64,000 bases of DNA from Sarcomyxa edulis. Lineage: Eukaryota > Basidiomycota > Agaricomycetes > Agaricales > Mycenaceae. A program made the position numbers and the translations under genes. Positions 18,756-48,168 of this stretch are shown here, one piece after another (position 1 is the first letter of the stretch; every line of letters starts with the position of its first letter). Where the stretch lies: positions 1-64,000 of the forward strand of contig QUOL01000034.1 in assembly GCA_009761415.1 (NCBI GenBank), given 5' to 3'. The notes under the pieces were generated by a model. That model had not been told where the DNA came from. It did no database searches and saw nothing but the letters and a program-made list of their open reading frames with translations.

Positions 18756-18900
18756 AGTTCTGTAGCACGGAATTGGGGGGAGGAAAGTAGACAGGGAATC
18801 TGATGTTGCCCGCGCACCCCACTATATATATGTGCAGAAAAGAACTTGTATTATTTTGGACCATCACCATGTGATGTCCCATATTATTGTTACATAGCAT

Positions 18901-22084: not shown

Positions 22085-22188
22085 CGTAGGCAGAAAGGTG
22101 TGTGCGCGTGTTGGGGGGGGGAGAAAAACAAATGCTGAAAAATTGAACAGTTAGATATAATTTAAAGCCATTCCAATGAAAGTGAAGT

Positions 22189-22313
22189 GGTGATCCGACC
22201 CCGAGACAGACAGAAGAGTCAATGTCTCGGGGTATCGCGACGGACAGAAGAGTCAACGTCGCGATAGACGAGGACGCGGACAGCAGAGTCAACGCATCCT
22301 CGTTGGATGGACC
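22189..22313 (-). ncRNA. Four-way-junction (cloverleaf) structured element, copy A
   Basis: Read on the minus strand: a closing stem (GGT..ATCC with GGAT.ACC) encloses three hairpins with stems ACGAGGATGCG/CGCGTCCTCGT, TATCGCGACG/CGTCGCGATA and CCCCGAGACA/TGTCTCGGGG (10-11 bp, the last two perfect). Each is capped by TTGACTCTNCTGTC, within which GAC and GTC can pair. The element sits inside a predicted intron, donor at 22361 (CAG|GTAAGT) and acceptor at 22135 (TTTCAG), in the 5' leader of the 926-aa partner gene whose ATG is at 22084. This copy has the longest stems. No known RNA family is recognised. Confidence 0.75.
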
Positions 22314-22361
22314 AGGGGGGGGGAGAAGAGGGGAGCAAAAAAAAGGCAAAGAGAAACTTAC

Positions 22362-23136
22362 CTGGTTAAGACAATAAAGGGACCGGTGGGGCGAAACCAA
22401 AAACGAAGACCAAGGAAATGTAAAGAATGAGGGAGAGGATGAGAGTGAGGAGGACGGCGAGAAGTGAGACGAAGACCCAGGCAAGGACGACGGTGGTATC
22501 AATGGTGAAGTTGTCTTGAGTGATGATTGAGATTGAGTGATGATGAGAAAGATTGACGAAAGTCCAGACGGTCGAAGCGGAGTTGGGCTGAGTCCGAAAC
22601 TCTAATCACATGACTGAACACATCTTACAATTCTCGCGTCCAGTGTCAATTCTTCGGTTGTGCTGACAGATCAAAGACCGGTACGTTCAATCTATAAGCC
22701 TTTTACATATTATTAACCATATTTCTTAGTTTTTAATTCCCTCCCAAACCTCACAGAAACTTTGGTCTCAACCATGAAAGATCTTCCGCCCAATTAGGCA
22801 ACACTTCAAACTTCCAAGTTCGAACTTCTAAAGCCGCCTTATCTTTTTTTTGCATCGCCATCATCTTCAATCATTGTTCTCGCCATCGTCGTTGTCCTCG
22901 TTGTTGTTGTCCTCTTTGTCGCTTTCTTCTACGTCGCTGTCTTCAAGAAGTTCCTCGTATGATTATCGACTTGACCGTGCAAGATCTTAGCAAGAATTCG
23001 ATCGTCAAGTTGCAAACTTCCACAGCCGCCTTATCTTTTCTCTCATCGCCATCTTCACTCGTTTTTCTCGCCGTCTTCGTCACTGTCTTTTTCTTCATCA
23101 TCATCGACGGCCTCTGTTTTCACTTCTCGAGAACAG
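22362..23136. other. Divergent intergenic/leader region
   Basis: Between the minus-strand partner gene and the plus-strand leader introns. It contains an imperfect duplication of about 0.2 kb (near 22800-22900 and 23010-23100, sharing GCCGCCTTATCTTTT and CATCGCCATC) and pyrimidine-rich runs. It probably contains the promoters of both directions. No coding sequence is supported. Confidence 0.4.
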
Positions 23137-23187
23137 GTAAGCCCCTCACTTTTTTATCTATCCCATTCCCATCCCACCTTTCCTCTT

Positions 23188-23313
23188 GGTCTATCCAAGC
23201 AAGGGGGAGTTGACTCTTCTGTCCACCCCCTTGCTTTCCGCGACGTTGACTCTCCTGTCCGTCGTGGGACCGCGAGACATTGACTCTTCTGTCTGTCTTT
23301 GGGCTGGGTCACC
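23188..23313 (+). ncRNA. Four-way-junction structured element, copy B
   Basis: The closing stem GGT..ATCCA / TGGGT.ACC encloses three hairpins: CAAGGGGGAG/CACCCCCTTG (one A-A mismatch), CCGCGACG/CGTCGTGG (one G-T pair), and a weaker third stem ending AGACA/TGTCT. Caps are TTGACTCTTCTGTC, TTGACTCTCCTGTC and TTGACTCTTCTGTC. It lies in a predicted intron from 23137 (CAG|GTAAGC) to 23376 (branch-like ACTGAC, acceptor TTACAG). It is the first of three in the same direction upstream of the gene starting at 25477. Confidence 0.75.
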
Positions 23314-23376
23314 AACTCATCTCGATTTTTGATTCCATTTTCTTAGTTCGAGATGTACTGACTTGCATGATTACAG

Positions 23377-24689
23377 GCAAAACTTGCTGTCTAGCACTCA
23401 TTTTCATTCATGCTGTCGTACTCGTCTCGTACTCGTCTGCTTTCCGTGTGCATTCTCGTTGTTTCAACATCTACTTGGTTCAATCCATACCGTACGTGAA
23501 AGTTGGTCGTTTAGCTCCTTCGAAACTGACATCCCCTAGCACAGATCCAGACTAGCAATCTCGCTCGTATGATGGCTTTGATTGACATCGACATTTTCCT
23601 GACACATTGTAGGTCTAATTTATGCATATTTCTCGATTCTTTCCGGCCTATCTCAATCAGGAGGCCTTGCATTTTTTTTTACCTCCGTTATTTCGGGCTT
23701 ATACTGACATACGTTCTCACCCAGTCTCGTTCTTGTTAATCGTTTTGGAGAATATTGCCGTTGTTTCGCGTGATTGCCGGTCTGCTTAAAGGATATCGTT
23801 GTCGCATCTCGTTGTGAGTTTTCTCGGAGGATACACTCGTCGCTTCTCGTTCTTGGAGGATATTGCCGTCCGCTTGCAACATTAAGTATACATATCATAC
23901 CGTTCTGTGTTTGTGTCCTGTATTGACTCCTCCCACTTTTAGCCCTCTCCATCATCTGATTGTGAACCAGTATAATATTCCCGAGCAAAACCCCTCTTCC
24001 TAATCCCCATGGTATCATTCCCCTTTCCATGCAGTCAATTACTTCAGACTTTCCTGTCAGTGATTCTTTGCCGTGCTCAGATTTCTAGATAGTAGTCCTG
24101 CTGTTTCTTCCTTTTTGGACCAATAATGATGTGTAGGCTCTACACACATTCTATTCTCTTTTCGTCACTGCATGGGCTTTGACACTCAAACTGATGAAAT
24201 CTGCAGTCACGCCGAGTCCATATCGCGCATTGGTGTTTGTTTTGGGTCAAACAGCTCACCAAACTCAAACTCAAACTAACTCCCTGCAAGAGGGTGCCCT
24301 GGTCTATGGCTGGGGCCCGGGATATTCAAGTCGTTCACAACATTTTGCCCTCACGCCAAAATGCTGTGTACCTACATCAATGTCATTTCCGTACTAGTAC
24401 TACACACGCAAATGCAGGAGTAAGTTGTTTCCTTGTCTACAATGTATTTGGTATATACTTATTGACCTTCCTGTCGACACTAGCACGCGTTGTCGCGGTA
24501 AAGACGTGTCCTGTTTTGCGTGACCTGGCACGTGACCTCGCACATAAACAAACAACTTCCTTGCTGACTTTTTCTTTTTTTCTTCTTGTTTTGTTTCCAT
24601 TTCCTTCTTCTAACCTCTCCCTCTCGTCCTCTCCTTTGCTCTCTTCCTTCGCTCGTATCGCTTTCGACATCGCTTTCGACATTCTATAG
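23377..24689. other. Noncoding leader/spacer between cloverleaf copies B and C
   Basis: About 1.3 kb without a supportable gene. Two imperfect copies of a GGATATTGCCGT / GGATATCGTTGT-type segment lie at 23745-23880. No ATG-started frame has codon or domain support. It may be a long 5' leader with further introns, or unrelated spacer. Confidence 0.35.
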
Positions 24690-24745
24690 GTGAGTTGCTT
24701 CATTGTTCTGCTTTTCTTTCGTGCTGTCCCCCTCCCCTTCTCTCT

Positions 24746-24870
24746 GGTCTATCCAAGCAAGGGAGAGTTGACTCTCCTGTCCACTCCCTTGCTGACTGCG
24801 GCGTTGACTCTCCTGTCCGCTGTGGTCCCCAAGACATTGACTCCTTTGTCTGTCTTGGTGTTGGATCACC
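24746..24870 (+). ncRNA. Four-way-junction structured element, copy C
   Basis: The closing stem GGT..ATCCAA / TTGGAT.ACC pairs fully. Hairpin stems are CAAGGGAGAG/CACTCCCTTG (a G-C pair of copy B replaced by A-T), CTGCGGCG/CGCTGTGG (with G-T pairs) and CCAAGACA/TGTCTTGG (perfect). Caps are TTGACTCTCCTGTC twice and TTGACTCCTTTGTC. The predicted intron runs from 24690 (TAG|GTGAGT) to 24933 (branch-like GCTAAT, acceptor TTACAG). Confidence 0.78.
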
Positions 24871-24983
24871 AATTTTGTTTTCTTCTGCATGGTCTGTCTT
24901 CTTGTTTCCGGGTGCTAATGTGTATCTTTACAGTCATTCCTTGCTGCATATCTATAATCCTATATTGCCCCTGCTTCGCCGTT

Positions 24984-25190
24984 CCCTTCGACATGTACGT
25001 TGAATTTCTTACAATTTGCGACTCGGCCTACCCACTAACAAATTTCGATGCAGACCTACATCTTATTCAGTCTCGCCTCTCTGGTTCTTCTTGCCTCAAG
25101 TTTGCCGCCGCTATCGCCCTCCCCTTAGCATTGTACGTTACATCTAGAAACTTCACAAAGTCAACATGCCCACTAATGTTGCTCGATGCA
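24984..25190 (+). other. Two small look-alike introns in the leader
   Basis: Two GT...AG intervals (about 24989-25052 and 25130-25190) both begin GTACGTT and end CCCACTAA...TCGATGCAG. They look like duplicated leader introns between cloverleaf copies C and D. They support the view that 23.1-25.5 kb is a spliced 5' leader, but no transcript evidence is available here. Confidence 0.4.
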
Positions 25191-25283
25191 GCTCTACTTC
25201 CTGCTTACCGGCCTTAGTTCTGTATCGACGAGGACATTGTAAGTCAATTTAGCCGTTTTATTGTCTCGTTCCATCTCTTCTGT

Positions 25284-25408
25284 AGTCTATCCAAGTGAGG
25301 GGGTGTTGACTCTCCTGTCCAACCCCTTGCTTTCCGCGACATTGACTCTCCTGTCCGTCGCGGCACTCAAGACATTGACTCTATTGTCTGTCTTGGAGTT
25401 GGGTCACT
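25284..25408 (+). ncRNA. Four-way-junction structured element, copy D
   Basis: The closing stem is AGT..ATCCAA / TTGGGT.ACT: the outer G-C pair of the other copies is changed on both sides to A-T, a compensatory change. Hairpin stems are TGAGGGGGTG/CAACCCCTTG (one mismatch), CCGCGAC/GTCGCGG (perfect) and CAAGACA/TGTCTTG (perfect). Caps are TTGACTCTCCTGTC twice and TTGACTCTATTGTC. The predicted intron runs from 25239 (ATT|GTAAGT) to 25461 (branch TCTAAC, acceptor TGTAG), ending 15 nt before the ATG at 25477. Confidence 0.8.
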
Positions 25409-26962
25409 ACTTCTATCTTGTTCCGGTGGTTTCAGATTTTTCTAACGGTTCATTTGTGTAGTCATCCTTTCGGTTTATGGCGCCTCCTGCACCGACACGC
25501 ATCACGTGTTCCGTGACGTGCAATACCCCACAAACTCGAACATCGCAGGCTCGTAGAGGGCGTAAGAAAACCGGTGCCAGGAAGAAGGCATTCTTGCCAT
25601 CGTCGTCAGATCATGACTCTCCGTCTTCGGAGGAAGAAGCTGGCTCTTCGGGCCATGAAACCATGCCGTCCGAAGATTCCAACCAGGTGGAACGCAAAGT
25701 TGGCCGTCCGCCACCAGGAGCAGTAAGGAGTGTAATCCTTTGACGTCTCAGCGCCAATCTCCTCCAACTCCCTCCGTGCCTCAGCACCAACCTCCTCCAA
25801 TTCCATCCGCGTCTCAGCACCAAGCCCCTCCGCCTTCTGCAATTACACAACTCGCCGTGTCGACACCTTCTCCTGCTACGCCATTGCGTACGCCGACATT
25901 GCCAGATCCACCTCCCACCCCATCTGTCCAACGTGTCCGGACAAAAAGGAGGAGGACAGATAAAGCTGCCTCTAGGGCAATGTACCCCGCTTCCGTAGAC
26001 ATGAGCACCGTCAAGTATCCGTCAGCCTCTTCTCTGCAGCCTTATGAGCGAAATAGTGGATGGTTTGCGTACCGGTACGCCTTTTGGCATGCAACAAGGA
26101 AGATAATATGTCACGTTCAATATATTGGTGACACGCCAATTCTCGGTATTCCCGAGAATGAAGAAGAGGCTGAGAGACTTGTCAAGACCAACATCCAAGT
26201 CTTCGAGACTGGCGCGTTTCACCCACTTCCCAAGGGCTGGATTGTTCCTGCCCACCATCTCACAACTTCTCAACAGTTTGCAGACGACTACGATGATTGG
26301 CTTGCATCCAAAGATTGGAGTCCTGAGGATCTGGAGACGGGACCTTGGCTGTCAGTGCCACTAGAGGAGCCCGAGACTCCGGAAGGGCCTGTTGGTGAGC
26401 AAGCGTTCTGTATAGACAGCTCGCCATCGGAAGTCATCGGTTGCAACATCGATGATGACTTACTCCCACAAATCAACAGTGATTTTGTGTGTGACCAAAG
26501 ACTGGCCGGGTTGTGGATGTCGCGGATTTGGATGATGATCAAGATGAAGATGGAAATGATGATGCGCCAATCATCAAGTCTTCCCCTTCTGGAAGTGATT
26601 GGAGTAAAGATCGCAAGGAGAAGGAGGCAAAGTTGGAATTCCGACGGAAATTGGGCTATGATGAGCCACACACTGAGGAAGAGGACAATGAGGAGGACTT
26701 GGAACTTGAGGGAGAAGTTGTGGAGAGTCCTGACAGAGTTAATCACAAGGGGAAAGGGAAAGCTAAGGAGGTACATGTCGGCTCGGAGGATGAGATTGAT
26801 ACAGTGGATTGTAAGAGAGGTTCTCTTTCAAAAGATAAACTTGCGCGGATCGATTCGCTGCGCCGTTTGATTGAGATGGCCATTGAAGACCTAGCGAAAA
26901 CTCTCAACAGGTCGCACTCTCTGGTCAAGTTAAACATTGGCTTCTTGATCACGCCGTCCCGT

Positions 26963-28709
26963 TGTGATGAGGACTGTGGCGCTAGGAGTAGATGGGTTAG
27001 ACTCCTAACTGTAGTTCGCCTCTAGGGGGTAAGGTGACGTTTTCTCGGAGGGGATTTTACGTAGCGAGAAATCCTAATGCCCAGTGACTTGTATTTGGAT
27101 AATGTGTTCGTAAAACGGTGGCGAGGTGGGTATGAGATGATGAGGTGTAAGGAAAGCTTCGGACTTGTAGGTTCGTTCTCGGTAAGCCGTTTAGAGGTTT
27201 CGGACAGCTATAAGTTTGTTCTCAAAAAACCTGCGAAGGCTTTGGACAGCTTTCGGAGAGCTGACCGATGCTTCGGACAGCTTATAAACGTCTTTGGAGA
27301 GCTATCGAGGGCTTCGGACAGTTATAAGTTCGTTCTTGGAGAACCTACGAAGGCCTCGGACAGCTCTCGGTGAGCTGACCGATGCTTTGTATAGCTATAA
27401 AACGTCCTCGGAGAATTATCGAAGGTTTCGGACAGTTCTGAATTGATTTCGGAGAGCTTCGAGGGTTTCGGACAGCTCTGAACTGATTTCGGAGAGCTTC
27501 CTTTGTTCCGAGAGTGATACTGCTGGCTGAATCAAGTCCTTTTCTCTTTGTTCGACCGACTCCTGTAATCGTTTCCTTGTCTCGGTTTCAGAAGTATGAG
27601 AAAGAGATAGAATTCCTATAGAGAGTGACTGGGTAGTTGGTCGATTTGGGTATGTTCCTCTGGTTCTCGTCCACACTGGTTCTATCTACCGTTCTCCATG
27701 TCCTATCCTACTTTATATATGAATTCCTTCCCTGTCCTTGCCTAATTCTTCACCCCGAGTGCCGTCCCAAGGTCCCCGAGATCTCCAATGATGAAACAGA
27801 TCCGGTATTGGTTTTGATGTGTCCGAACCTCGCTCAGTGTGAAAGGTTAGGGCCTGAGGTGTTCTCTGAAAGCGTTGCAAGGTGAATTTGTGAAGGGATG
27901 AAACATGTCCGAGTGAGCAGGATGATGGGGAGCTTCCGATAGATTTTTCCAAGATGCGACGGCCAAAGTTGTCCGAGAAGAGTGAATTTGATGTGGGTTG
28001 CTAGGCGGAGACCTGTAGTGTCTTTGTTAGCGGGCGATACCTCGCTTACAAGTGCTGTGTCATGTGATAAACACAGAGGGAAGAATATTCCGTAGCACCA
28101 CTTGGTCAGGGTGGACGGAGGTCTTAACGAGGCGTCCAGATGCATGGAAAGGTGTGAATTGAGATCGCAATGTAAAGGGAATATGTCCGATTTGATAGGA
28201 AGAACAGCTCAGGGCAGCAAGCATCACGTTGGCGGTATGTCGACTGGTGGCGATGTTTTGTCGGTGAAGTATCTCTCGATGAGGTCTTCTAGAGGTGAAA
28301 GGGAGCCTGCTGAAACGATTTGGGATCTGTCCGAAGGATCTAGGGGGCCGCGGAGAGGTGATCGAGTATATTGGACTTTCGGTCAGGTGAAACGACGATA
28401 GGGAATTGGGTTCTGGCGGTAGATTTCCCTCGGAGAAGTTGTTCGTGTGTGATTTCAAGTATTCCAAAACGTTCTGAGACGTGACCGAAGGCGGGTTAGC
28501 GTTTCGTGAGTGGATGAAGAGGCCGCTTTCGGGGAGAAACCGTCAAGTAGCGGGTACTTGGTGTCTTTCAGTGTCCGGTCATTCGAAAAGTAAGTCGTTT
28601 GTGGTGATGCCACCAGTATCTCTGTAGTTAGCTATGTCTGGGGAGTCGCATAAGAGTAGGTTGTTGTATAGTTGTCGATTCCTTGGCTGGGGATGCTGGC
28701 ATCCTCACA
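26963..28709 (+). mobile_element. 1747-bp TG...CA interspersed repeat, copy 1
   Basis: It starts TGTGATGAGGAC and ends GGCATCCTCACA; ends are TGTGA / TCACA inverted. It is flanked by CCGT on both sides (26959-26962 and 28710-28713), a 4-bp target duplication, and its removal restores an open frame. No convincing coding sequence is seen. Internally it has a degenerate minisatellite and a TATA-like promoter (CTTTATATATGAATTC at about 27712). It could be a long solo LTR or a non-autonomous DNA element; the 4-bp duplication and lack of long inverted repeats leave this open. Confidence 0.8.
27160..27500 (+). repeat. TCGGACAGCT minisatellite inside repeat copy 1
   Basis: Degenerate tandem units of the type CTTCGGACAGCTATAAG / TTCGTTCTCGGAGAGC, roughly 55-60 bp, occur about six times. 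The same block recurs in copy 3 (about 55437-55780) and, shortened, in copy 2 (about 46300-46460), accounting for most of the length difference of copy 2. Confidence 0.65.
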
Positions 28710-30639
28710 CCGTGCTGCCAACCTGTGGAATCTCTATCAGCGATTCTACTCTCTTGATCACCCTCAGCCAAAGCCAAGTGAAGGTGGTGAGCTCCTGTTC
28801 CGTCTACATTTCACTCAAACAGATACTAATAAACATTTCACAGGGGAAGCTGTCAGAGCATGGAACCGGGCTGTTCAAGCAGCATACACAGAGTTCATGG
28901 AAGGTGTAGATAGTAAGGACAAGGAGGGCTGGGAAGCTAAAAAGGAAGAGCTCCTTGCGGAACTTGCAGTTGCAGATGCCACCATTGCGATGCAATCCCC
29001 TGCCAAGGCTGTGAACACATGCATTCACCAATTGACACGCCTTGTTAGTTGGGATTTTTTCTTCCTACGATTGTGTTCTTGCTGATGTGGTACCACATAT
29101 AGGCACAAAACTGGAGTAATATTGGTGTTGAGATGTGGGGAGGTGTTGTACACCATAAACCTGAAGGCAACATCGCCAGTGGTACCTTCGCTGGCGCGCC
29201 CGAAATCAAAGCCATCATTGAAAAGAACAAAGTTCCTATCCAGGAGCTGACACATCTTGTCGCTGCAGGAATGATGTTAGTTTGTGAGTTTGCCAGTCCT
29301 TGAGCATGTCTAACACATTCTCACCATGTAGGGTGGAAATTGCCAACAAATCGGGACCTCTCATACTGCCTGTGTTGGCAGAGACAAAGAAGAAGCCCAA
29401 ACAAGATGAGGTGCGCACTCAGGTGTACCTCATGGGTTTCCTCTAAAGGCAAACCACATTTTGCAATCAAGACTGCCATCACCCATCACATCAGAGCTAT
29501 GAACTGGCCTGATGGTGTCAAGCCTCTGGGCCCTGGTTTTGAGGTCAAGAAGTTGGTCGGTGCTTCATTGGGGCAGCTCGCTGATGCACTGAATGGAGAG
29601 GAAGGGGATACAGGTCAGGTCCATCAGGTTCGGTTTGAGAAGTGGTCAGAAGGTTTGTTTCTCAATGTTTCTCTTTATTTCTACTTATCTAAGCCATTGT
29701 TCTTCACAGAGAAATGTCAACTGTCTCCAGATTCCAAGGAGTATGCAATGATTCCTTTGGTGATCTCTCAAAGTGGCCCTGTGTTGTTCCGCGTCTCAGA
29801 TTCTATGAAAGCTCCAAAGGATAAGGCTCCTGATGATCAGGGATCTTCTGATGAGGAAGTGCCTGCTCCACCTTATGACCCGTGGCAGTCGCAATCCAAT
29901 TCCGGGAACGCTGTTGCCTCCACATCTCATCTTGGTCCCCAACAGCCTCCTCCTGGTGCTCGTCCCAGACAGTCTTCCTCTCACTCTCGTAAACGCTCTG
30001 CCTCACAGCAAAGGGCCGCATCAGATTCTTATCCCTTGATGCAATCTCGCTTGCGGGCTGAGCAACAATTGGCCCAGGTGGATGAAGACTATGCAGCAGA
30101 TCACTTGGAGCAGCATCCTTCAAAACGCTCCAGAACTCAAGAACAGGAACATGCTGCTTATCCTGTGCAGTCGGACTCTTCCCAGCAACCATATCATGAT
30201 CCTCGCATGTCCAGTCACCCTCCGGAGCCACAACATGGTTATCGTCAACCTTATCGCAACTTGGACTATGAACATGATGAGCGACACATGAGGCAGGGGG
30301 ACTATAACATGGAGCCTCGTCGCTATCATGGTTATGATTATTGGAGGCAATCACCAGGTCCTCAGCCTTGGGATGAGCCTAGACGTCATTATGGTGGAGG
30401 ATATTCTGAGCCTTGATATCCCAACTATCCACCTCCACCTCCACCACCTCCCTCTTCCTGGCACCCTGATCCTGGACCTTGGCAGTATGATAATTCCAGC
30501 CGGCAGCCCAACAACCAGTCTCGTCGTGCTTCTGTTCCTCCACCTGAAAGGACCTTGGGGGTCCTCCCTCCAATGAGTTGAATAGAGGTGCATATGATGC
30601 TCCTTCCAGGCCGCGGAATGTCTACCGGGATCAGTATTG

Positions 30640-30870
30640 AGTTGTTTTATATATTTTGTACATTTACGTTTACTGGCAGATACCCATCATTGCCATGGAC
30701 TTGCATATTCTTTACGTTTACAGGCTGATACCAATAATTGCCATGGACTTGCATATTCTCTATGTTTACAGGCTGATACCAATGATTGCCATGGACTTAT
30801 ACATATCTTTACATTTTACTTTTGGCTTATACCCGCATATCTGCTCTTGCCATGGACTTGTACATGATAT
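30640..30870 (+). repeat. About 48-bp tandem repeat with GCCATGGACTT core
   Basis: Three to four units containing TTTACAGGCTGATACC and ATTGCCATGGACTTGCATA follow the AT-hook gene. The core resembles the GATTGCCATGGACTAC motif in the tails of the KDZ genes at 5057 and about 15170-15230, hinting that this is the opposite subterminal region of the same composite element. Confidence 0.6.
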
Positions 30871-30989
30871 AGAACTTTAGATCATTCTGCATGTCCTGAT
30901 ACAATATTTCTCACTGGTTGAGCACTCTGGTTCAATCTAGCGTGACATAATAGTTCATGTTCTTTGTGCACAATTGAGAAATGCCTGCC

Positions 30990-31345
30990 CAAGTATGTAG
31001 GATCTCACCATGACTGGGTGTCCCATGGTTTCGTTGTGGTTTTCCTAGGTTCAATGCGGGATTACCCCACATGACTTGGGGACTTCCCATGCACCACCTG
31101 GGAATATCCCATATCTGATGTAGGATTGTCCCATTATGACTGGGATGTCCCATTGCCTAATTAAGATTATCCCGCGTCCAATGTGGGATCATCACACATG
31201 ACTCGGGACTTTCCATTGGCCACTTGAGAATATGTTACATCTGATGTAGGACTGTCCCAGCATGACTGGGATGTCCCATTGCTCATCTGGGAATATCTCA
31301 TCGGGAATGGAGCTGTCCCATTTTAACCAAGGCATCCCATGTCTA
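30990..31345. repeat. Degenerate array of palindromic TGGGA...TCCCA motifs
   Basis: About ten units of roughly 30 bp, each an imperfect palindrome such as TGGGATGTCCCA or TGGGAATATCCCA. Similar motifs fill 13380-13520 and 13650-13770 at the palindrome centre and 5220-5450 in the left tail. They are likely subterminal repeats of the composite element; no TIR or duplication could be read beyond them. Confidence 0.5.
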
Positions 31346-31399
31346 TGCTGTGTATTCCTTTGTGAATATGGTACTTTCCAATGTATGTAAGGCTGATTA

Positions 31400-32230
31400 G
31401 ATCGTAAAGAGAAAATGGTCTGCCTTGGGAGCCAGACCACAATTTTTAGATGTATGGCAAGGCGAGTGGGAGTTTGATTGAAAGCAATGTGAGGCAGGTA
31501 AATAGTGAAACCAATGCAAGTGATGGTAATGACACATTAGACTAGAGCTGTCAAGACAGAAAATAAAATGAGAATAGCAAAGATCTAATAAATTTACAAT
31601 GGTAAATTGAAAACCGTGCAAAAGCAAAAGGGCACACAAGTGAGCGTGAGGGTGTCCTAGGTAAATGAACAATGAATGGGGGTGGTGATGATGATGTTGA
31701 TGCCAACAGCAAGAAGGAAAAGGAAAGCGAGAGGGAATAGAGAATTTATACCAATCTTTAGCCAGTGCACAAGTGCGGATCTATCTGTAGGTACTTATGA
31801 TTTGATCCATGAGAAACTCACAGGTGTGAGTAGTGTTTATTGACTCGACCTGTGGGTTAACTACCTGCACAGATCTGGGTATCAAATTTGAAGATATTTC
31901 ACAGGTACTTGCTCAAGTAGATCCGTGGGTATTACGATATACGGCACATTTGTCAGCTTTTTAGCTTCAAAGCTCAATACCCACAGGTAACAGGTACCTG
32001 TTGGCAAATACCTGGCAGCTCTGGGTATTGGTTTTGAAGATGCAACTACCCACAGGTCAAGTACCCAAACCTGTGGATCATGATCTGTGCCTAGCCTTAG
32101 ACCAATCCCGGTCAAGTACCCAAACCTGCGGATCATGATTTGTGCCCAGCCTTAGACCAATCCCAATGCAATATGAGAAACAATTACTTGCAACCAAATA
32201 AAAAAAACCTCTGCCTCGTCCTCTGGAGGC
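31400..32230. repeat. Gene-free stretch with a 56-bp tandem duplication
   Basis: Mostly low-information intergenic DNA. The segment GGTCAAGTACCCAAACCTG... is duplicated head to tail (about 32056-32111 and 32112-32165). Related degenerate phrases (ACAGGTACTTGC, ACCCACAGGT) occur from 31800 on. No gene is supported. Confidence 0.45.
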
Positions 32231-34110: not shown

Positions 34111-35069
34111 AGACAAAGGTGTTTTTCCAGATGGAGGGGCATTTTTACATACAAGCACGGTCAGAGGAGTGAGCTCAGACGGTTTCATTATGATTGTACA
34201 ACCGCGTGCTAAAGCTGGAGCAACATTCCATGACCTGGAAGAAAGACGTCGGTGGTTGAGTTAAATTTTGAGAAGATCTGTCCACATGACGGTGTCAGTC
34301 CCAAAACTTACCACATATTAATAGGATAGTTCCACGGGATACTGTCAGAGGGGAAACAGGAAGGGAGTGAATCGAGCAGTGTCATAAGCTAAGACTTTCG
34401 ACAAGAAAAAAAAAAGAGGAACAGGATGAATAATTACATCTGACCACAGACGCCTATTGGTTCATGGCGAGTGAAGGAAAGCTTAGTACGGTTGTCCACT
34501 TCAATGGTCTGTCACCTTCGTATCAGGACTCGGATGCAGACTGTGAGAAGAGAATCTTTGCACGCACTTCACCAACGATCTTGTCAGCCCAGCCAGCATA
34601 GTATCGAAGGCATTGGACGCTATCTCCGATGTCAAAGTCTCTATCCTTCTGATCCTGGACAAACTCAATGCACCTGCTGCATTGGGCTGCCTGCAGTCTG
34701 TATGCATTTCAAGAGTTGAGCCAAGGATGGATGGACATCTACCGGATCCAACGCTTGGGTGACGTTTTTGACGTACAAAGGCATAGGGTCGGGACTTGAA
34801 ACTGAGTGAGACCAAACACTCTAAAGGTTCACCCAACAATGAGTCGAGTTTGACTTGTCATCTGGAACCGTCGAGGAGTGAAACAGCCAAAAACACGAGT
34901 TTAACGACACAGAAGAGATACAAAGACGGAACGAGTAGCGATGATGCGTTGATGAAGTGGATATCTCTGGAGAAAAAAAGGGAACGGAACCAAAAAAAAT
35001 AGTGATCATGTTCTCAGGTGGTGTTATGCAGCCTCCTCAGAAGTTGATTGAGTATCCCAACTCCCGCGT
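34111..35069. other. Intergenic stretch, no gene supported
   Basis: About 1 kb between the repeat element and the homeodomain-like gene. Short frames on both strands lack recognisable domains, plausible intron structure or repeats. Confidence 0.35.
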
Positions 35070-36261: not shown

Positions 36262-36299
36262 TTTGGCCGTGAAAAAAGAGGGTGGAAGGGAGAGCAGAG

Positions 36300-39095: not shown

Positions 39096-39469
39096 CAGGA
39101 AAATGCACTTTTCCCTAGAGCACCCTGAGGGTAAGCCAGAGCTTCCCAGAGCTTCTCAGAGCTTCTCAGAGATTTCAGAGCTTCAGAGCACTCAGAGCGC
39201 TCTGGGAAGCTTTAGAGACAAGTTACCTTAGCCAGAGATCTTAAAGATGTCATGGGGTATCCTAGGGCTAATTCAGAGCAATCCCAGATAATCTCAGTGC
39301 TACTCTGGATAATCTCAGTGCTACCTCAGATAACCTCAGTGCCTGTCAGATCTATTGAGTGTAGTTCAGAGCTTTTAGAAATATCACATTTTCTTGCATA
39401 CAAGTCAAGTTTTATTCAATTAAACACATATATTCATGGTCTTCTAATACATTATAACTACAAGAGAGC

Positions 39470-40130
39470 TAGAAAAATAGAGGAAATAGTAGGGAAAAGG
39501 ATGGAGATAGTATAGGGAGGTGACAAAAGGTTGGGAGGTGGTGAAAAGAAGTAGGAGGTGAAAAAGAGCTGGGGGAGGATGCAAAAGAGATGGGGGAGGG
39601 TGGAGAAAGGTAGAAAAAGGTACAAGGGGATGAATTTAAGGTAGGGGGAGGGACAAAGAGGTGGGAAAAGGTAAAAAGAGGTGGAGAAAGGTGGAGAAAG
39701 GTGAAGGGAAGGTGGGGGAACATACAAAGAGGTGGGGAGAGGTGGTAAGAGGTAAAAAGAGGTAGGGGAAGGTGGAGAAATGTAAAGGGGAGGTGGGGGG
39801 AGGTAGAGGAAGGGAAAAAGAGGCAGAAAAAGATGGTGAAAGGTGAAAGGGAGGTGAGAAAGGTCAAAAAAGGTGTGGGGAGGTAGGGGAAGGTGATAAG
39901 AAGTAGGGGAAGGTGATAAGAGGTAGGGGAAGGTGAAGAGGGAGGTATGAAGAGATCTAAACAGGTGGAAGCAGGTGGAAGATGGTACAAAGAGATGGAG
40001 AAGGTGAAAGAAGGTGAAGGCAATATAGGGGAAGGCCAAAAGAGGTGGAGAATGGTAGAAAGAGGTAGGGGGTGATGGAGGGTGGTAGGGGGTGGTAGAG
40101 GGTGGTGAAAAAAGTGGTGAAAAGATGGTG
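39470..40130 (+). repeat. Polypurine minisatellite 2
   Basis: Units such as GGTAGGGGAAGGTGATAAGAG and GGTGGAGAAAGG; G/A-rich on + for about 660 bp. Same position within the element as minisatellite 1 but different unit sequence. Minus-strand frames of Ser/Pro/Leu/Phe over it are not genes. Confidence 0.8.
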
Positions 40131-40604
40131 ATACATATGCAAAAGATACAACATATCTTCTTTCCCTGTTCCTGGTTTCTTCCTTCCCATCTCTAAGCTC
40201 TCCATCCTCCAGAGTTATTGGTAGGATCTAGAAGCAGAATATATCAGCAGAAAGGACACAAAAAGAAACATATCTACAGCAGCAAAAATGACAGCAAAAT
40301 TGCCATGTCACCAATTGCTGTGCTCCAGCTTCTTCAAAGAGCAGATTAGTAAGCCAAGATGACCAGGAACACTGGTATTGAGAATGTAGATGATAGAGCA
40401 ATTAGTGGAAAGCAGAGGGAGGAAGGTGGAAAGAGGAAGAAGGATGATGAGCTGGCAGCCAAGTTCGCTTTCAGAGTGATGTGACACCATCACATGTGCA
40501 ATGTCACGTCACACAACGAGCGAATTTCTCTAAGTCCAAAATGTGTTTGCATAAGAGGCTATACCTCAGGGTGATAGTACGAGGATAGTCATATAATTAC
40601 ATGG

Positions 40605-40690
40605 TCTTGTAGACTATTGGTTAAGTTGTTAGTTTGTCGAAGTCATGTGCCTTTTAAGTGAAGTGCTCGAGTTCAAGCCTTGCTGGATGC
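40605..40690 (+). repeat. tRNA-like (SINE-type) segment
   Basis: TAGACTATTGGTTAAGT resembles an internal box A and GAGTTCAAGCC a box B about 50 nt later, the layout of a tRNA-derived pol III promoter. Arms do not fold as a functional tRNA, so it is tRNA-derived debris. Confidence 0.4.
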
Positions 40691-40970
40691 ATTTGTTTTC
40701 TTCGATGTTCTAGTCATCCGAAACCTGTTTTTTTACTCTATTTTACATCCTTTTTCAATGGTATGCCAGAGCATCCCAGGGTGTCTGAGGTACCCTGGGA
40801 AACTACTTATTCCTAGGGCATCTCAGAAAGCTCTCAGACAACTCTCAGAGCTTCTCAGAGCTTCTCAGAGTCTCTCAGAGCATTCAGAGCTCTTAAAATA
40901 CCCTGAGATGCTCTGAGATGCTTTGGGAAGCTTTTGGTTCTCTCAGAGCATGTGAGAGACAAGTGACTTT

Positions 40971-41700
40971 TCCTGATGAAGTTGTGAAGGACAGACGTAA
41001 AAGATAAAGGAACAGGAGGAGTAGGTAACTCTGCATCTAAATGATCTGTCCCAGGACAAAGTTCTTGGCTATAAGCTCAGGAAAGTTTAGACTCTGGAAT
41101 CCAGTAGAGATAAATGAAATAAATCCAGGAGTATTCCTGGATGCAGATAGACAAAATGAGATAACTCACAAGGACAGTCAGTCATTGCCTGACTTGGAGG
41201 CTCTATCAATTAACTCTGAAGCATCCAAAGAGATGAGGGCTAGTCCAGATTTGCTTGTAGAAGAACTAAGAGGGGTTGGGTGATGGTAGGTGCAGGGAAA
41301 TGCTTACCTTACCTGATAAGGGAGCTCTGGAACTTTAGAACCATATGGACAGACAGTGAGTAATGATATATCCATCTTTTATTAGAATTTAAGTATCAGT
41401 GAGAGGCTCCTTGGAGGCTAAGAGCTTGAGAGAATCAAAAGGAAGATTGAGAACTGGAGATATAGCCTATAGACAAGGAAGATCTGCTGAGGGAAGAGAA
41501 CTAATGAGCAGAGTTGAACAGAGGCCAGAGTTGAGCAGAGGCTAGCAGAGGACTCAAGGAATGGAGGTTGTTTGGCCTAATAGTCAACTTTGCACTCATT
41601 GTTTATTTTGTGCTTGTACAGGAAATTTGTGCAATAAACTAATGGGCAGTGAGTGCATAGTCAATAGCCCAGAATTGATACTAATTGTGGGATTTCCATG
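40971..41700. other. Intergenic stretch, no gene supported
   Basis: Short frames only, purine-biased on +, with imperfect GCAGAGTTGAGCAGAGGC repeats near 41500-41550. No recognisable feature. Confidence 0.3.
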
Positions 41701-41749
41701 TATTTCCAAATGTTGGTAAAAATACACTCTGTCTGATGGGTGGATAGCA

Positions 41750-42252
41750 AAACTGAGAAAACACTGAGAAAACACCAAGAAAATACTCAGGAAACAATGA
41801 GAAAATGCCGAGAAAACACTAAGAACACTGGATGTAGTGCATGCTCATTTATAGTGCTTAACCATTTCATATCCAAATTCCAAGGCATGAGCTCTGACAC
41901 TATGATGCGCTGTAGAGGTACTTCATGTATTTTTGAAAAACCGTATTGCAGTTGTGCTCGAATCGAGAATTGAACTCGATTCGAGCGCAACCGCGATGCA
42001 AAAAAATGTCTGCAAAAATATCATAAAATTTATGCACTGGCTGGATTCGAACCTGTGTGAAGGCGTGAGCTTGAACCGATCACGTGATCGATGACGTGCG
42101 AACAAGTGTACTCTACAAAACATACACTCGTTCGCACGTCATCGAACCACGTGATCTATTCGAGAAGAAAATAACTGCGGTCATACAGGATCGAACTTGG
42201 ACTCTTCGGTCTTATTACCGAGAAACTGACAAGTTGACCACTAGTCTACATA
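41750..42252. repeat. Composite short repeat, family S copy 1
   Basis: In order: an 11-bp tandem array CTGAGAAAACA (41752-41830); a perfect 12-bp-arm palindrome GCTCGAATCGAG / CTCGATTCGAGC (about 41954-41985); a minus-strand tRNA-like segment with box-B-like GGTTCGAATCC (about 42043-42055); a 54-bp palindrome (42090-42143); and another minus-strand tRNA-like piece (about 42178-42252). The same order recurs at 51040-51600, so this is one repeat family and probably a tRNA-derived SINE composite. Confidence 0.55.
42090..42143. repeat. 54-bp palindrome, copy 1
   Basis: Arms GATGACGTGCGAACAAGTGTA and TACACTCGTTCGCACGTCATC (one mismatch) around a 12-nt centre. An equally long copy lies at 51494-51547. 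Confidence 0.75.
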
Positions 42253-42527
42253 ATCACATGACACTTTGAACATTTCGTAATCACATCCTGGGGGGTGTCT
42301 CCTATGCCAATATAAAAAAACATTGTTCTAACAGGCTCCAAGGAGGTCTACTTGTATGCAGGTAATGTGTATAGTCTAGATAGTGTAGCCAAATATACAA
42401 GGGTATGATTTCACTCGTACACTTGTTCACAGATCATAGGTTACATGACATATCACGTGATGTGTCATGTGTCGCATTGTTGAAAAGCTGTGGAGGTTCT
42501 TGTTTCATATTTCACTCCCCACTCGTC

Positions 42528-43173
42528 ATGTCCACCCCCGGTCATCTTCTTGACAAATGGACTCACAGACATGATATTCAGTGTATCCAAAGAGACTACT
42601 TAGCCACGACTGACAAAACAACTCCCGAACAACTCCAACGCTTTATTGAAATTGATGACGCAACTCGGAAACGTGGAGTTGGGGTAAGTTTTCCTCTGTC
42701 TTCGAGATATGAGCATGATTTGTGACGTATACTAGGATCCCCCTTGCCTACGCAGTTATGCCGTTCTCCCTGCTGAATTCAATCTTTTTGGTCGGGAACC
42801 AGAATATGCGACCTATATACGTGCACGTTATTTTGGTGTAGGCGTGACTGCCGAAACCATCATACGGACTGCTTCACGTATGAACGTCAGGATTCCCCGT
42901 ATCGACTCCACCAGCACAGTCACTACCTGGCACATGGCCCTGTTGACAGGTCAAAACATTGCCACTGTTTTATCGAAGATATGCCGGCACCCTATCAAGT
43001 GCCGGTGGGTTGCCAGTGGACACACGACCTACGCATTCACTATATTTAGCAACTACGACCCAACTCCAACCGCTCCCCTCAACAACGACAAACAAATGCT
43101 CATTGCAATCATACAAACATTTCTGGGTGTCGAGAAGTCACCAGAGTGGTATTTCGAAGGGTATGCCTATTGA
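42528..43173 (+). CDS. Hypothetical two-exon protein (197 aa)
   Basis: The ATG at 42528 opens MSTPGHLLDKWTHRHDIQCI. Exon 1 (42528-42683, 52 codons) joins exon 2 (42736-43173) across a 52-nt intron with donor GTAAGT and acceptor ACTAG, in phase 0, giving 197 aa. Exon 2 reads DPPCLRSYAVLPAEFNLFG, YATYIRARYFGVGVTAETII, TWHMALLTGQNIATVLSKIC and ends FEGYAY. It has no transmembrane segment, signal peptide or catalytic motif that I recognise. The clean intron and balanced composition make it the best candidate for a real host gene in the central part of the window, but an unknown transposon gene is possible. Confidence 0.5.
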
Positions 43174-43179
43174 TGTGGC

Positions 43180-45300
43180 GATTTTATCGTTGGTATTGGC
43201 TGATTGTGCAAAGGTAAGATAATTTCTCAATGCTATATGTGTGTGTTCATAAATAACTAACACATTGTCCTAAAATTCAGTGGGAGATGATTTTTGTTTA
43301 GTATACATAATGACATTTGGTTTTGAGTGAAGGTGTTATTGTAAGGAAATTCATCAGAGATAATCTGATTATAACACGTACCATTTTTTTGGATTCTCTG
43401 TGAGCACAAATGCATTCAGATACAGCACCGGCCTCACATTGAACACGCATGCTGATCCAAAATGATGAATAAATTCAGAAATCATCCAATTTTAGAGCAT
43501 GGTTTTTTAAGACTTGCAAATTCGAACAAGTCACACGTGGGAGCACTTCTATTTTTTTCCGCATTGCACACATATATCAAGAGCTTCTTCTATATTGTTG
43601 CAATTTGTGGTCTAGAATGTTTGATCGTGCTGTCCCTCATTGCGATGGAATGGCAGAACTCCAATTGTTCTGCTGCATCACTCTTGAAGAACTGGTCCAC
43701 ATAGAACAACCCCAATGTTTGTGTCCATCTTCTCTTTTGGGGTTTGCACAAACAGAAGTGACAGTAATGAGACAATCAAAGGGGATAGGGTTCATTGTGG
43801 GTAACATTGAGCGTGGTTTAGCAACAGGACTGGATTTTACGGAATCTATCAGCGAGGACTCTATGACTGTCAAGGTTGCCAATCACTGCGTTAAGACCCA
43901 GATTAGTTGCACTTTGGCTAGATACGGTTATGCAGGGGTAGGTGAAACTACTTAAATACCTGAAGGTTGGGTAGGAGGTCTATTCGTGTAAATTTGTATG
44001 TCAAGTATCTGTGGCTTGGTACGACTACGTGAAAGTTTTTGAATACTTGGGATTTGGCTAGGTCTGACTATGGCTAACCAGGGGGTTACTCGAGGGTCAA
44101 ATATACCTTCTACTCACAGATGTGTGTCTAGGTGCGTGCACTCAACATGCTCAGCCTGCAAGTAGATAGACTACTTGCAGACCGTGACTAGATGGTATAT
44201 ATTGGGTCCGACTAGCTCCGACCAAAAGAGGTCTTAACACAGTGAATACCATACTGGAATCCATAAAATCTACTTATAAACACCACAAGGACATGTACCC
44301 TCTCTATACCTGAATTTGCTGGTAATCAGAATTGTTCAAATGGATTGAATACTTAAAGCCAAGGGGTGCTGGCTTCTGAGTTTTGCTTTCAGACCCACAG
44401 AGCGGACCTACCTACGTCATAAGCAGCACATGGTCTATAAATTGCCTTATTGGGAATTCCAATCACCCGGATCACCCCTCGACTATAACAATGACTCTAC
44501 CGGGCAGGCCTGGACACTTCAGTATAACTGAGGAAAGGTTGTGTGCGCGGCAAAGCCCTGCACTCCCCCATGAATGCCTCACTTTGTCAAAATGCAACAA
44601 ACTGAGTTTTGTAACACCCTCAAAGCTTTGGGAGCTTACCCATTTCAGTGCATCTATCTGCAAAGGGTAAGGTGGGGTATTGTACAATCTACATTGAGTA
44701 CACTGCAGTATTGTAATAGGTGTTGGGATCCTATTAGCTTGACTCCGGAGAGATACCAGTACTTAGCATCTACAACAAGGGGACAAAGGATGGTTATAAA
44801 CAGGTAGATTGCTAGGGGACAAACACATAAGGAACAGGTGTTCCAACTTGGAGTATGTGCAGCAATCTACAGAGTAGTACAAACACTATTAAATACTTGG
44901 GTGGCATGTAGCAGCACGCACACCAAGTGTTACTCCAATATGCAGGACATGACCCGCACAGCTGATTTCAAGTTGCCTTGTAGTCACTCTACCTCCTGCC
45001 AAATGAGGGGTGGAGATTGCAATCTATATTTGCCACACAATCTGCCTCATTCTTCTTCAGACTATAGCTAATAGGAACATCTCTAGATTTCCTGGGAATA
45101 CTTGTTTCTTGGACTACAAAGACACTAGATGTTAGATTCACTGGTGGTGGTCCCAATCCAGAGGCTCTCTGTTTTGTTCTGTTCTCGTCAAGTCAGATTG
45201 TTTTCTCTCACGCCTTGTCCAGGGACTATACACCAAAATCAACAATCTTCTCGTTATTCTCTCTTGTACTATGACAATGAATAGCGAACATCACCCCAAA
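43180..45300. other. Gene-poor stretch
   Basis: About 2.1 kb with only short frames. An open frame at 43605-43955 lacks a plausible start and any domain. No strong tandem repeat or RNA gene is seen; some phrases near 44080-44230 (CTCGAGGGTC, ACTACTTGCAG) repeat weakly. Confidence 0.3.
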
Positions 45301-45329
45301 TTCAAGGTACATACATCACATGTGCACCT

Positions 45330-45880
45330 TTAGAACATCAATCTGACAAAATTCAAGATTGGAGATTATGCATGGAGACGAGACGGAATTTCTCATATGT
45401 GGCATTGGTCAAAGATTGCTGCAGTCCACAAAGATGAATTTATGGTATGTAAGATGTTGTTTACTGTGTTTGACAATTGATACGCAAACATGAGATAGGA
45501 TATTCTCTCGTGGGCGTACACTGTGTACAATATCTCGGGCTTTACAAGCTGCTGTCTGGAATCGGAGCTTCAACACCCTACATCTTTTCCATTGCAGAAA
45601 AAGAAGGCTAAACGTAGAGTGTGGGACAAAAACACCGCTCAGTATGCACTTGACCATATTGACGATTTAGCTGGGTTGTTACAGTAATTTGTGTTATTAG
45701 CAGCAATACATTATATTGGCTGCAGTAAATCTCATTCCTCAACTAGAAAAGGTCATCCCGACAAAGAGAATAGGATCAGGAGATCCTTGCTGCTGGCAGG
45801 CTTGACCACTTTGCTGGCGCATGACGCGTGATGTCACATCATGCAAAACGCACGAGATAGAAATGAAGGGTGTAATGGTC
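45330..45880. repeat. Duplicated segment, copy 1 (inverse of 54197-54548)
   Basis: The sequence around CATATTGACGATTTAGCTGGG and the LTR insertion-site context (GATAGAAATGAAGGG) reappears in reverse complement at 54197-54548. Both copies carry the same LTR at the same position, so the segment was duplicated after LTR insertion. Nature of the parent element unknown. Confidence 0.6.
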
Positions 45881-46100
45881 AGACTAATGCCGGTCCATTA
45901 CACCCAGTTTGTTACTCCAATAGTCACATCTGTCACACTCTGATCTGATTGCCAGCTGTACTTTCCTTTCTCTTTGTCGAATCAACACCAGTAATTGGCA
46001 CTTCTCAGTATCGAGGACTCTAGCTAAGTTTCCCTTGACTTTTCGCTATTCTGTTATGCCAGACTCTCCCTCTATTTTCCATCCTCGGTGCCTTGCCCGT
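45881..46100 (-). mobile_element. LTR, copy 1, truncated by the 1.75-kb repeat
   Basis: Reverse complement of the solo LTR at 53962-54196. It lacks the last few bases (its end CCCGTTACA is cut after CCCGT) because the interspersed repeat begins at 46101. Confidence 0.65.
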
Positions 46101-47652
46101 TGTGATGAGGACTGCGGCGCTAGGAGTAGATGTGCTATACTCCTAACTGTAGTTCGCCTCTAGGGAGTAAGGTGACGTTTTCTCGGAGGGGATTTTACGT
46201 AGCGAGGAATCCTAATGCCCAGTGACTTGTAATTGAATAATATGTGTGTAAACCGGTGGTGAGGTGGGTATGAGATTTGATGAGGTGTGAAATGTAAAGA
46301 AAGCTTCGGACAGCTGTAAGTTCGTTCCCGGTGGGCCAATAGAGGCTTCGGACAGCTTTCGAAGAGCTGACAGATGCTTTGGACAGCTATAAAACGTCTT
46401 TGGAGAGCTATCAAGGGCTTCGGACAGCTCTGAACTGGTTTCGGAGAGCTTCCTTTGTCCGGGAGTGGTACTGCGGACTGAATCGAGTCCTATTCTCTTG
46501 TCTTCTGTAATCGTTCTTTTGTCTCGGTTTCAGAAGTATGAGAAAGAGATAGAATTCCAATAGAGAGTGACTGGGTAGTTGGTTGATTTGGATGTGTTTC
46601 TACGGTTCTGGTCCACACTGGTTCTATCTACCGTTCTCCATGTCCTATCCTACTTTATATATGAATTCCTTCCCTGTCCTTGCCTAATTCTTCACTCCGA
46701 GTGCCATCCCAAGGTCCCCGAGATCTCTAATGATGAAACAGATCCGGTATTGATTTTGATGTGTCCGAACCTCGCTCAGTGTGAAAGGTTAGGGTCCGAG
46801 GTGTTTTCTGAGAGTGTTGCAAGATGAATTTGTGAAGGGATGAAACATATCCGAGTGAGCAGGACGATAGGGAGCTTCCGATAGATTTTTTCCAAGATGC
46901 GACGGCCAAAGTTGTCCGAGAAGAGTGAATTTGATGTGGGTTGCTAGGCGGAGACCTGTAGCGCCCCCGCCAGCGGGCGACACCCCGCTTACGAGTGCTG
47001 TGTCATGTGATAAACACAGAAGGAAGCACATTCTGTAGCACTACTTGGTCAGGGTGAACGGAGGCCTTAACGAGGTGTCCAGATGCATGGAAAGGTGTGA
47101 ATTGAGATCGCAATGTAAGGGGAATATTTCCAATTTGATAGGAAGAACAGCTCAGGGCAGCAAGCATCACGTTAGCGGTATGTCGACTGTTGGCAATGTT
47201 TTGTCGGTGAAGTATCTCTCGATGAGGTCTTCCAGAGATGAAAGGGAGCCTGCTGAAACAATTTGGGATCTGTCCGAAGGATCTAGGGGGTTGCAGAGAG
47301 GTGATCGAGTACGTTGGGCTTTCGGTCAGGTGAAACGACGATAGGGAATTGGGTTCTGGCGGTACATTTCCTTCGGAGAAGTTGTTCGTGTGTGATTTCA
47401 GGTATTCCGAAACGTTCTGGGACGTGACCAAAGGCGGGTTAGCGTTTCGTGAGTGGATGAAAAGGCCGCTTTCGGGGAGAAACCGTCAAGTCGCGGATAC
47501 TTGGTGTCTTTCAGTGTCCGGGCATTCGAAAGGCAAGTTGTTTGTGGTAATGTCACCGATATCTCTGTAGTTGGCTATGTCTGGGGAGTCGGACAAGAGT
47601 AGGTTGTTGTATAGTTGTCGATTCCTTGGCTGGGGATGCTGGCATCCTCACA
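46101..47652 (+). mobile_element. TG...CA interspersed repeat, copy 2 (1552 bp, more diverged)
   Basis: Same termini as copy 1 (TGTGATGAGG ... CATCCTCACA) but shorter, mainly in the internal minisatellite. Flanks do not match as one insertion: on the left is an LTR ending CCGT, on the right the middle of a cloverleaf element starting CCGC. This is what recombination between two separate insertions would leave. Confidence 0.75.
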
Positions 47653-47727
47653 CCGCGACGTTGACTCTGCTGTCCGTCGTGGTTCCCAAGACATTGACTC
47701 CATTGTCTGTCTTGGGATTGGATCACC
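47653..47727 (+). ncRNA. Four-way-junction structured element, copy E (5' truncated)
   Basis: Only the second and third hairpins and the 3' closing strand remain: CCGCGACG/CGTCGTGG with cap TTGACTCTGCTGTC, CCCAAGACA/TGTCTTGGG (9 bp perfect) with cap TTGACTCCATTGTC, then ATTGGATCACC. The 5' part was replaced by the interspersed repeat ending at 47652. A branch-like GCTGAT and acceptor TTCAG at 47785 remain, as in the complete copies. Confidence 0.75.
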
Positions 47728-48043
47728 ACCCTTCGTTGCTTTGACTATCTTCTTGGTTCAACTTGCTGATGTGTATCAATTCAGGCTCCCCTCAATACAT
47801 ACTCGCTCCAAAATTTTCTCCCATTCCGATTACTTCCACACACACCCTTACCCACCCCCGCTCATTGTCAGGATTTGTTGTTGACGCCAACAGGTTAGTT
47901 CGATATTGTTCTTTTAGACCGTGGCATGACAACTAATATATTTCACGTAGCTTTTCTGCCTCCTCAGCTTTGCTGTACTGTTCACAGTATTCCAGTGCCT
48001 CGTAAGTCAATTTCCTCATGTCATGGTAGCATATTTTCTCGGC

Positions 48044-48168
48044 GGTATATCCAAGCAAGGGAGAGTTGACTCCTTTGTCCACTTCCTCCCTGACCACAAT
48101 GTTGACTCTGCTGTCCATTGTGGTCCCCGATACATTGACTCCTTTGTCTGTTTCGGGGTTGGATCACC
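48044..48168 (+). ncRNA. Four-way-junction structured element, copy F
   Basis: The closing stem GGT..ATCCAA / TTGGAT.ACC is complete. Hairpins are a weaker first stem (AGGGAG/CTTCCT), GACCACAATG/CATTGTGGTC (10 bp perfect, sequence unlike the other copies) and CCCCGATACA/TGTTTCGGGG (one mismatch). Caps are TTGACTCCTTTGTC, TTGACTCTGCTGTC and TTGACTCCTTTGTC. The predicted intron runs from 48002 (CTC|GTAAGT) to 48222 (branch CTGAC, acceptor ACGCAG), 15 nt before the ATG at 48238. Confidence 0.8.

What the first reader, a model, noticed from the sequence alone, without database searches (positions are those of the whole stretch)
22189..48168. A repeated four-way-junction RNA-like element with 17 identical-type hairpin caps and covarying stems
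Five complete copies (22189-22313 minus; 23188-23313, 24746-24870, 25284-25408, 48044-48168 plus) and one truncated copy (47653-47727) share one architecture of 125-126 nt: an outer stem GGT..ATCCAA / TTGGAT.ACC enclosing three hairpins. All 17 hairpins carry the 14-nt cap TTGACTCYNYTGTC, in which GAC and GTC can pair across a TCYNYT loop behind a TT bulge. The stems change but remain paired. The second hairpin is TATCGCGACG/CGTCGCGATA in copy A, CCGCGACG/CGTCGTGG in B, CTGCGGCG/CGCTGTGG in C and GACCACAATG/CATTGTGGTC in F. The outer pair GGT/ACC becomes AGT/ACT in D. Fixed caps on freely covarying stems are the mark of selected secondary structure. I do not recognise any Rfam-type family, tRNA, snoRNA or riboswitch with this layout.
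Basis: seen in the sequence. Interest (0 to 1): 0.92.

Follow-up and report, generated by a model that had tools for sequence, protein, structure and literature searches.

The report
Capped RNA hairpins in transposon introns
A mushroom-type jumping gene carries, inside what look like introns near the start of two of its genes, many copies of a folded RNA with three hairpins whose tips hardly change while their stems change in matching pairs, which suggests an undescribed RNA switch or docking platform used by a DNA transposon.

Summary
All 17 caps and six copies are where stated. The host genome holds 125 exact caps against 3 for the reversed pattern. In 35 distinct copies 23 of 47 base pairs show double, pairing-preserving changes, more than shuffles and a tree-based null (12.3 on average, at most 21 in 1000). 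No Rfam family comes near its threshold.

First, the copies lie in inferred spliceosomal introns, in sense orientation: 36 of 38 distinct flanks carry both splice signals, 0.15 in shuffles. Second, these introns belong to two divergent genes of a KDZ DNA transposon, in 13 clusters of 2 to 8 copies. A diverged second family keeps the caps with other stems. The closing 'four-way' stem is the weakest part.

Best mechanism (inferred): the pre-mRNA folds before splicing and a protein reads the caps to control splicing or nuclear fate of the accessory genes. No transcript data and no other fungal genome could be examined.

The parts
22189..22313 (-). three-hairpin element, copy A
   Evidence: 130.1 bits
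22135..22361 (-). inferred 5'UTR intron of gene A holding copy A (GTAAGT..CTAAC..CAG)
   Evidence: no RNA data
23188..23313 (+). three-hairpin element, copy B
   Evidence: 128.8 bits
23137..23376 (+). inferred intron holding copy B (GTAAGC..CTGAC..ACAG); 3' end read by eye, the script took a nearer AG
24746..24870 (+). three-hairpin element, copy C
   Evidence: 136.4 bits
24690..24933 (+). inferred 5'UTR intron of gene B holding copy C (GTGAGT..CTAAT..ACAG)
25284..25408 (+). three-hairpin element, copy D
   Evidence: 118.0 bits
25239..25461 (+). inferred last 5'UTR intron of gene B holding copy D; ends 15 nt before the ATG at 25477
47653..47727 (+). truncated copy (hairpins 2 and 3); cut where another repeat ends at 47655
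48044..48168 (+). three-hairpin element, copy F
   Evidence: 131.2 bits
48002..48222 (+). inferred last 5'UTR intron before a gene B-type ATG at 48238
16623..17591 (-). KDZ transposase exon of the same transposon (PF18758, E = 9.9e-65); same-strand parts at 15304-16610 and 18282-18821
19239..22084 (-). gene A, no Pfam family, start codon about 22084; open frames 19239-20909 and 20873-22150
25477..30413 (+). gene B, no Pfam family (MAPP-type start); open frames 25659-27022, 28672-29082, 29304-30413; split by another repeat at 26960-28712

Best explanation
A family of cis-acting structured RNA elements lies inside introns at the start of the two divergent accessory genes (A and B) of a KDZ-type DNA transposon in a fungus that is probably an Agaricomycete. 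In the nascent pre-mRNA the element folds into three hairpins. Each has a fixed tip: a 5' UU bulge, a GAC/GUC clamp and a UCYNHY loop. [quoted passage not shown] Shown by computation: structure under selection, splice signals in sense orientation, membership in the transposon, conservation between diverged families. Inferred: that the introns are spliced, and that a protein, from the transposon or the host, reads the tips and thereby controls splicing or nuclear fate of both accessory genes, with 2 to 8 such sites per cluster.
For: Covariation: 23 of 47 pairs and 129 cells with double changes; four of five measures reached by 0 of 500 shuffles, the fifth (further pair types) by 20 of 500. Tree-based null: 12.3 pairs (max 21) and 34 cells (max 68) in 1000 runs; 34 same-branch compensatory events in 18 pairs. 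Arm swap: own arms 92.6% paired against 62.5% swapped; second family 87.5% against 44.8%. In the 35 aligned copies the same 10 of 14 positions are invariant in each cap, GAC/GTC included (copies were chosen by near-exact caps, so this leans high). Mean pairwise identity 0.90 for caps, 0.78 for stems, 0.59 and 0.58 for flanks, about 0.51 for shuffled 5' flanks (561 pairs). Introns: 36 of 38 distinct flanks have both signals, mean 0.15 and at most 2 in shuffles; antisense 6 and 0 of 38 (the flanks are related by descent). In the second family a copy sits in a 231-nt intron whose removal joins coding exons in frame, while every frame has a stop if it is kept, in three copies, two of them near-identical. 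Events leaving a Watson-Crick pair give G-U 38 times and A-C 20 times, as expected if the sense RNA folds.
Against: No RNA-seq, probing or binding data. No RNA-binding domain found in gene A or B; both models of gene A are poor (mean pLDDT 43.4 and 49.9). The expectation that spliced leaders avoid upstream ATGs was not borne out: 0 in 202 nt (P = 0.20), 2 against 3.4 expected in 457 nt (P = 0.32). At C16 two of six hairpin triples (L048 6194 and 6536) show no clear intron by eye, and for the first of them the minimum-energy fold pairs hairpins 1 and 2 with each other. In the window no exact cap lies near the transposase gene. Only one genome was examined.
Confidence: 0.5

Rival explanations
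1. Splicing architecture only: the structure is a passive 'zipper' that folds away about 125 nt so that a long intron is spliced like a short one; no protein reads the caps.
For: [quoted passage not shown] Zipper stems are widespread in yeast introns (PMC12350175, abstract).
Against: It does not explain caps that hardly vary while stems do, nor copies that keep capped hairpins without a closing stem in the predicted fold.
Confidence: 0.15
2. The excised intron is the product: a stable intronic RNA with three docking tips that acts in trans, for example as scaffold or decoy.
For: Compact fold with three like tips and several copies per transposon; position inside introns as for many snoRNAs (recalled).
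Against: No Rfam similarity near threshold. No small-RNA data available here.
Confidence: 0.13
3. Intron-mediated enhancement: the transposon multiplies leader introns because intron number raises expression in basidiomycetes; the hairpins merely protect or aid the introns.
For: Tandem intron-exon units of about 302 bp, four in a row at C40. Intron number and position modulate expression cumulatively in Cryptococcus (PMC3744415, abstract).
Against: Two apparent plain introns of 59 nt occur in the same leader and would do; fixed caps are unexplained.
Confidence: 0.12
4. DNA-level function: the hairpins are extruded in DNA or act as binding sites for the transposase during transposition or replication.
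For: They belong to a DNA transposon, and hairpin DNA is recognised by some transposases (recalled).
Against: They lie between the divergent genes, 36 of 38 in sense orientation within splice signals. G-U exceeds A-C. Transposon ends were not determined, so sites there were not looked at directly; of the 100 caps listed, 93 lie in the clusters.
Confidence: 0.07
5. Recent duplication with random stem differences, or a coding repeat; no selected RNA structure.
For: Some copies are tandem duplicates; two of the three frames through a cap lack a stop; 16 of 40 introns have a frame open throughout.
Against: Covariation beyond the tree null, arm-swap control, element lengths in all three classes mod 3 (28, 11 and 3 of 42) and 24 of 40 introns with no open frame.
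Confidence: 0.02

Closest known systems
Zipper stems of Saccharomyces introns (PMC12350175, abstract)
   Different: Here the stem encloses three hairpins with fixed tips, recurs in a transposon gene pair, and is sometimes absent.
Autoregulatory intron or leader structures of fungal RPS13, RPL12 and lysyl-tRNA synthetase (PMC8216456, abstract and passages)
   Same: Conserved structure in introns or leaders, proposed to bind the gene's own product.
   Different: That screen covered Ascomycota only; no three-cap layout appears in the passages seen; here several copies lie in both genes of a transposon.
Drosophila P element third intron with the PSI protein (recalled, no call)
   Same: A DNA transposon gene controlled through regulated splicing of its own intron.
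   Different: P uses short linear sites near one splice site; here a structured element in many introns.
Retroviral CTE or RRE-type export elements (recalled, no call)
   Same: Protein-binding structures within intron sequence.
   Different: No retained-intron product is known here; sequence and layout differ.
Kyakuja and other KDZ transposons of Agaricomycetes (PMC12730594, abstract, section 3.2.1 and term search)
   Same: KDZ transposase; elements with extra genes.
   Different: That paper treats TET/JBP genes; the word hairpin does not occur in its main text.

Membership tests
KDZ DNA transposon | KDZ transposase domain PF18758 | tested here: met
   E = 9.9e-65 at window 16623-17591; transposase, A or B gene parts found at each of the 13 clusters, the transposase itself at some of them
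KDZ DNA transposon | 7-bp target duplications and CA..TG ends, as for Kyakuja | not tested
Spliceosomal intron | GT..branch point..AG in sense orientation | tested here: met
   36 of 38 distinct flanks with both signals
Spliceosomal intron | removal joins a reading frame | tested here: met
   coding intron L048 8346-8576 and the two C4 copies; leader introns have no frame to test
Spliceosomal intron | spliced transcripts | not testable with these tools
   no RNA data
Rfam families (tRNA, snoRNA, riboswitch, ribozyme) | gathering score of any of 4227 models | tested here: not met
   0 matches in the window; permissive search of 22100-25500 gave four, the best MIR8139 at 24.1 bits against a threshold of 90
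Introner elements | similar introns spread over many unrelated host genes | tested here: not met
   98 of the 100 listed cap pairs lie in clusters with genes of this transposon; the nine not listed equal in number the pairs remaining in the C40 cluster read from L047
Protein-bound RNA operator | a protein binds the cap and changes splicing or expression | not testable with these tools
   no binding or reporter data
Four-way junction RNA | closing stem enclosing three hairpins | tested here: inconclusive
   90.0% of cells paired but 1 of 8 pairs with double change; 26 of 40 introns; 3 of 6 second-family copies at C16

The most novel reading that the evidence does not exclude
A DNA transposon has evolved its own RNA regulon: each copy carries several three-tip RNA operators in introns of both accessory genes, read by one transposon-encoded protein, so that splicing of the whole accessory set is tied to copy number or product level.
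Probability: 0.27. Interest if true: 0.9.

Novelty: new variant of a known kind. Interest (0 to 1): 0.75.

Why it matters
It is an RNA structure family without a match in Rfam 15, with strong covariation within a single genome, tied to a mobile element. It gives a concrete way to test whether DNA transposons of fungi regulate themselves through intron structure. The nearly invariant cap is a ready bait for finding an RNA-binding protein. A covariance model of it can be run on public fungal genomes at once.

Tried and rejected
Coding repeat: rejected, lengths in all three classes mod 3 and no open frame in 24 of 40 introns. Duplication only: rejected. Introner-like spread into host genes: not seen among listed pairs. 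Base pairing of the caps with U6 or U2: no better than shuffled caps (for U6; the U2 part used the wrong strand and was redone). U1 not found, which does not show absence; U5 found but its letters were not given, so not tested. Upstream-ATG avoidance: inconclusive. Gene A: two poor models, so no fold search was made; the profile against solved structures gave only two matches at E = 0.13. Gene B relatives by protein search: none among the scored candidates. Relatives of gene A in viral contigs: none; the cap pair in viral contigs: none. Four cap-pair hits in prokaryote genomes were read: three lie in repetitive, low-complexity stretches and one (L051) in a degenerate direct repeat; I saw the three-hairpin layout in none. 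Literature: nine searches of the open PMC library listed no title or abstract start that describes this element; most subscription journals are not in it. Papers opened: PMC12730594 (abstract, section 3.2.1, term search), PMC3744415 (abstract), PMC8216456 (abstract, passages), PMC12350175 (abstract). Left out before the structure counts: seven identical copies of the 42, and all partial or second-family copies. Seven lone caps were not studied; one (C6) was fetched as L049 and set aside.
Full report
The sequence. The 14-nt cap occurs 17 times in the window (0.03 expected), at the places given. Genome-wide there are 125 exact caps against 3 for the reversed pattern. A pattern that frees all six loop letters finds 109 cap pairs against 0; of the 100 listed, two (C14, C23) lack the TTGACTC core. 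A second form, TTGACTCTYATGTC, occurs 30 times against 0, at C16 and C4 only.

Copies. In the fetched loci 42 copies are complete (35 distinct). A covariance model built from the 35 finds 57 matches with E of 6e-5 or less in 218,000 bases, and five weaker ones (E 0.006 to 0.33). The 57 are the 42, five truncated or decayed copies, and ten of the second family. They fall in 13 clusters of 2 to 8: the window twice, C12, C21 three times, C27, C34, C40 twice, C16, and C4 twice. The two C4 clusters are near-identical inverted copies.

Structure. Helices 2 to 4 (the hairpins) are 91.6 to 97.4% paired with 22 double-change pairs; helix 1 (closing stem) is 90.0% paired with one. Sliding partners by 1 to 3 columns leaves at most 10 double-change pairs. 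Four of five measures are reached by 0 of 500 shuffles, the number of further pair types by 20 of 500. Shuffles ignore relatedness, so substitutions were also re-placed on the tree of the copies: 0 of 1000 runs reach the observed values. Swapping hairpin arms between copies drops pairing from 92.6 to 62.5% (first family) and from 87.5 to 44.8% (second family; 88 distinct arm pairs in all). One pair of the named structure, columns 21-38, is unpaired in 30 of 35 copies and was kept in the count. RNAalifold on its own predicts 39 pairs, 21 with double changes, the three hairpins and only four pairs of the closing stem. Of six second-family copies at C16, three fold with a closing stem of unrelated sequence, two as three hairpins without one, and in one (L048 6194) like stems of hairpins 1 and 2 pair with each other.

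Introns. Of 38 distinct flanks, 37 have a 5' splice-site match 30 to 70 nt upstream, 37 a branch point and AG downstream, and 36 both. Block-shuffled flanks give 0.15 on average, at most 2; the antisense strand gives 6 and 0. The two misses are at C21:6566 and C27:83392. The flanks share descent, so they are not 38 independent cases. Median distances are 47 nt to the element, 41 nt to the branch point and 60 nt to the AG (36 flanks). In the second family a 231-nt intron with three capped hairpins interrupts coding sequence, and its removal joins the frame in three copies. For two further C16 triples I saw no clear splice sites.

Genes. The KDZ domain lies at 16623-17591. On the same strand lies gene A and, divergently, gene B, with parts of the same genes at the other clusters. 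The elements sit in leaders of A and B: in 9 of 15 locus strands the last placed intron is followed, after 15 to 96 nt, by an ATG that opens a recognisable A or B protein. In the window no exact cap lies near the transposase gene. Gene A has relatives of 38 to 48% identity in a source tagged lgn, presumably metagenomes, and one in Hypsizygus marmoreus (29%). The transposase has relatives in several Agaricomycetes among the 120 listed of 795. Neither A nor B has a Pfam family. The host is therefore probably an Agaricomycete; no call names it.

Conservation. Between copies the flanks are not far from random (0.59 and 0.58; shuffled 5' flanks 0.51) while stems (0.78) and caps (0.90) are kept. Between the two families gene A is 46% identical, yet capped hairpins in threes persist. 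This points to long-term constraint, not recent copying alone.

Mechanism. Fixed caps on free stems indicate recognition of the tips; the intron position places this before or during splicing; the presence in both accessory genes suggests joint control. That a protein reads the caps is inference, and its identity is open. No domain evidence favours gene A or B, and the upstream-ATG test gave no support for a strict splicing gate. Rivals are listed with what would separate them.

Novelty. No Rfam family comes near its threshold and the literature listings show no such element. It is rated a new variant of a known kind, because structured intronic control elements and splicing control of a transposon (P element, recalled) are both known in principle.

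Noticed in passing
26960-28712, 46303-47655, 55237-56989: A separate repeat (99.4% between first and third; second about 88.5% to both) interrupts gene B at 28712; its edge at 47655 truncates the element copy there.
   Followed up: partly
12467-14700: A 2.2-kb inverted repeat, 95.9% identical between arms.
   Followed up: no
128-5050: A second copy of the transposase region on the + strand, 96.6% identical at protein level to 16623-17591, with gene A's second part upstream.
   Followed up: partly
56985-57413: A fragment of a different KDZ transposase (E = 3e-38; 32% identical over 97 residues to the one at 16623-17591).
   Followed up: no
L048 6769-6853: A tRNA-Thr (TGT) prediction inside the leader region of the C16 transposon copy.
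   Followed up: no
alignment A1 columns 21 and 38: Hairpin 1 is unpaired at these columns, one pair below its tip, in 30 of 35 copies and C-G or U-A in 5.
   Followed up: no
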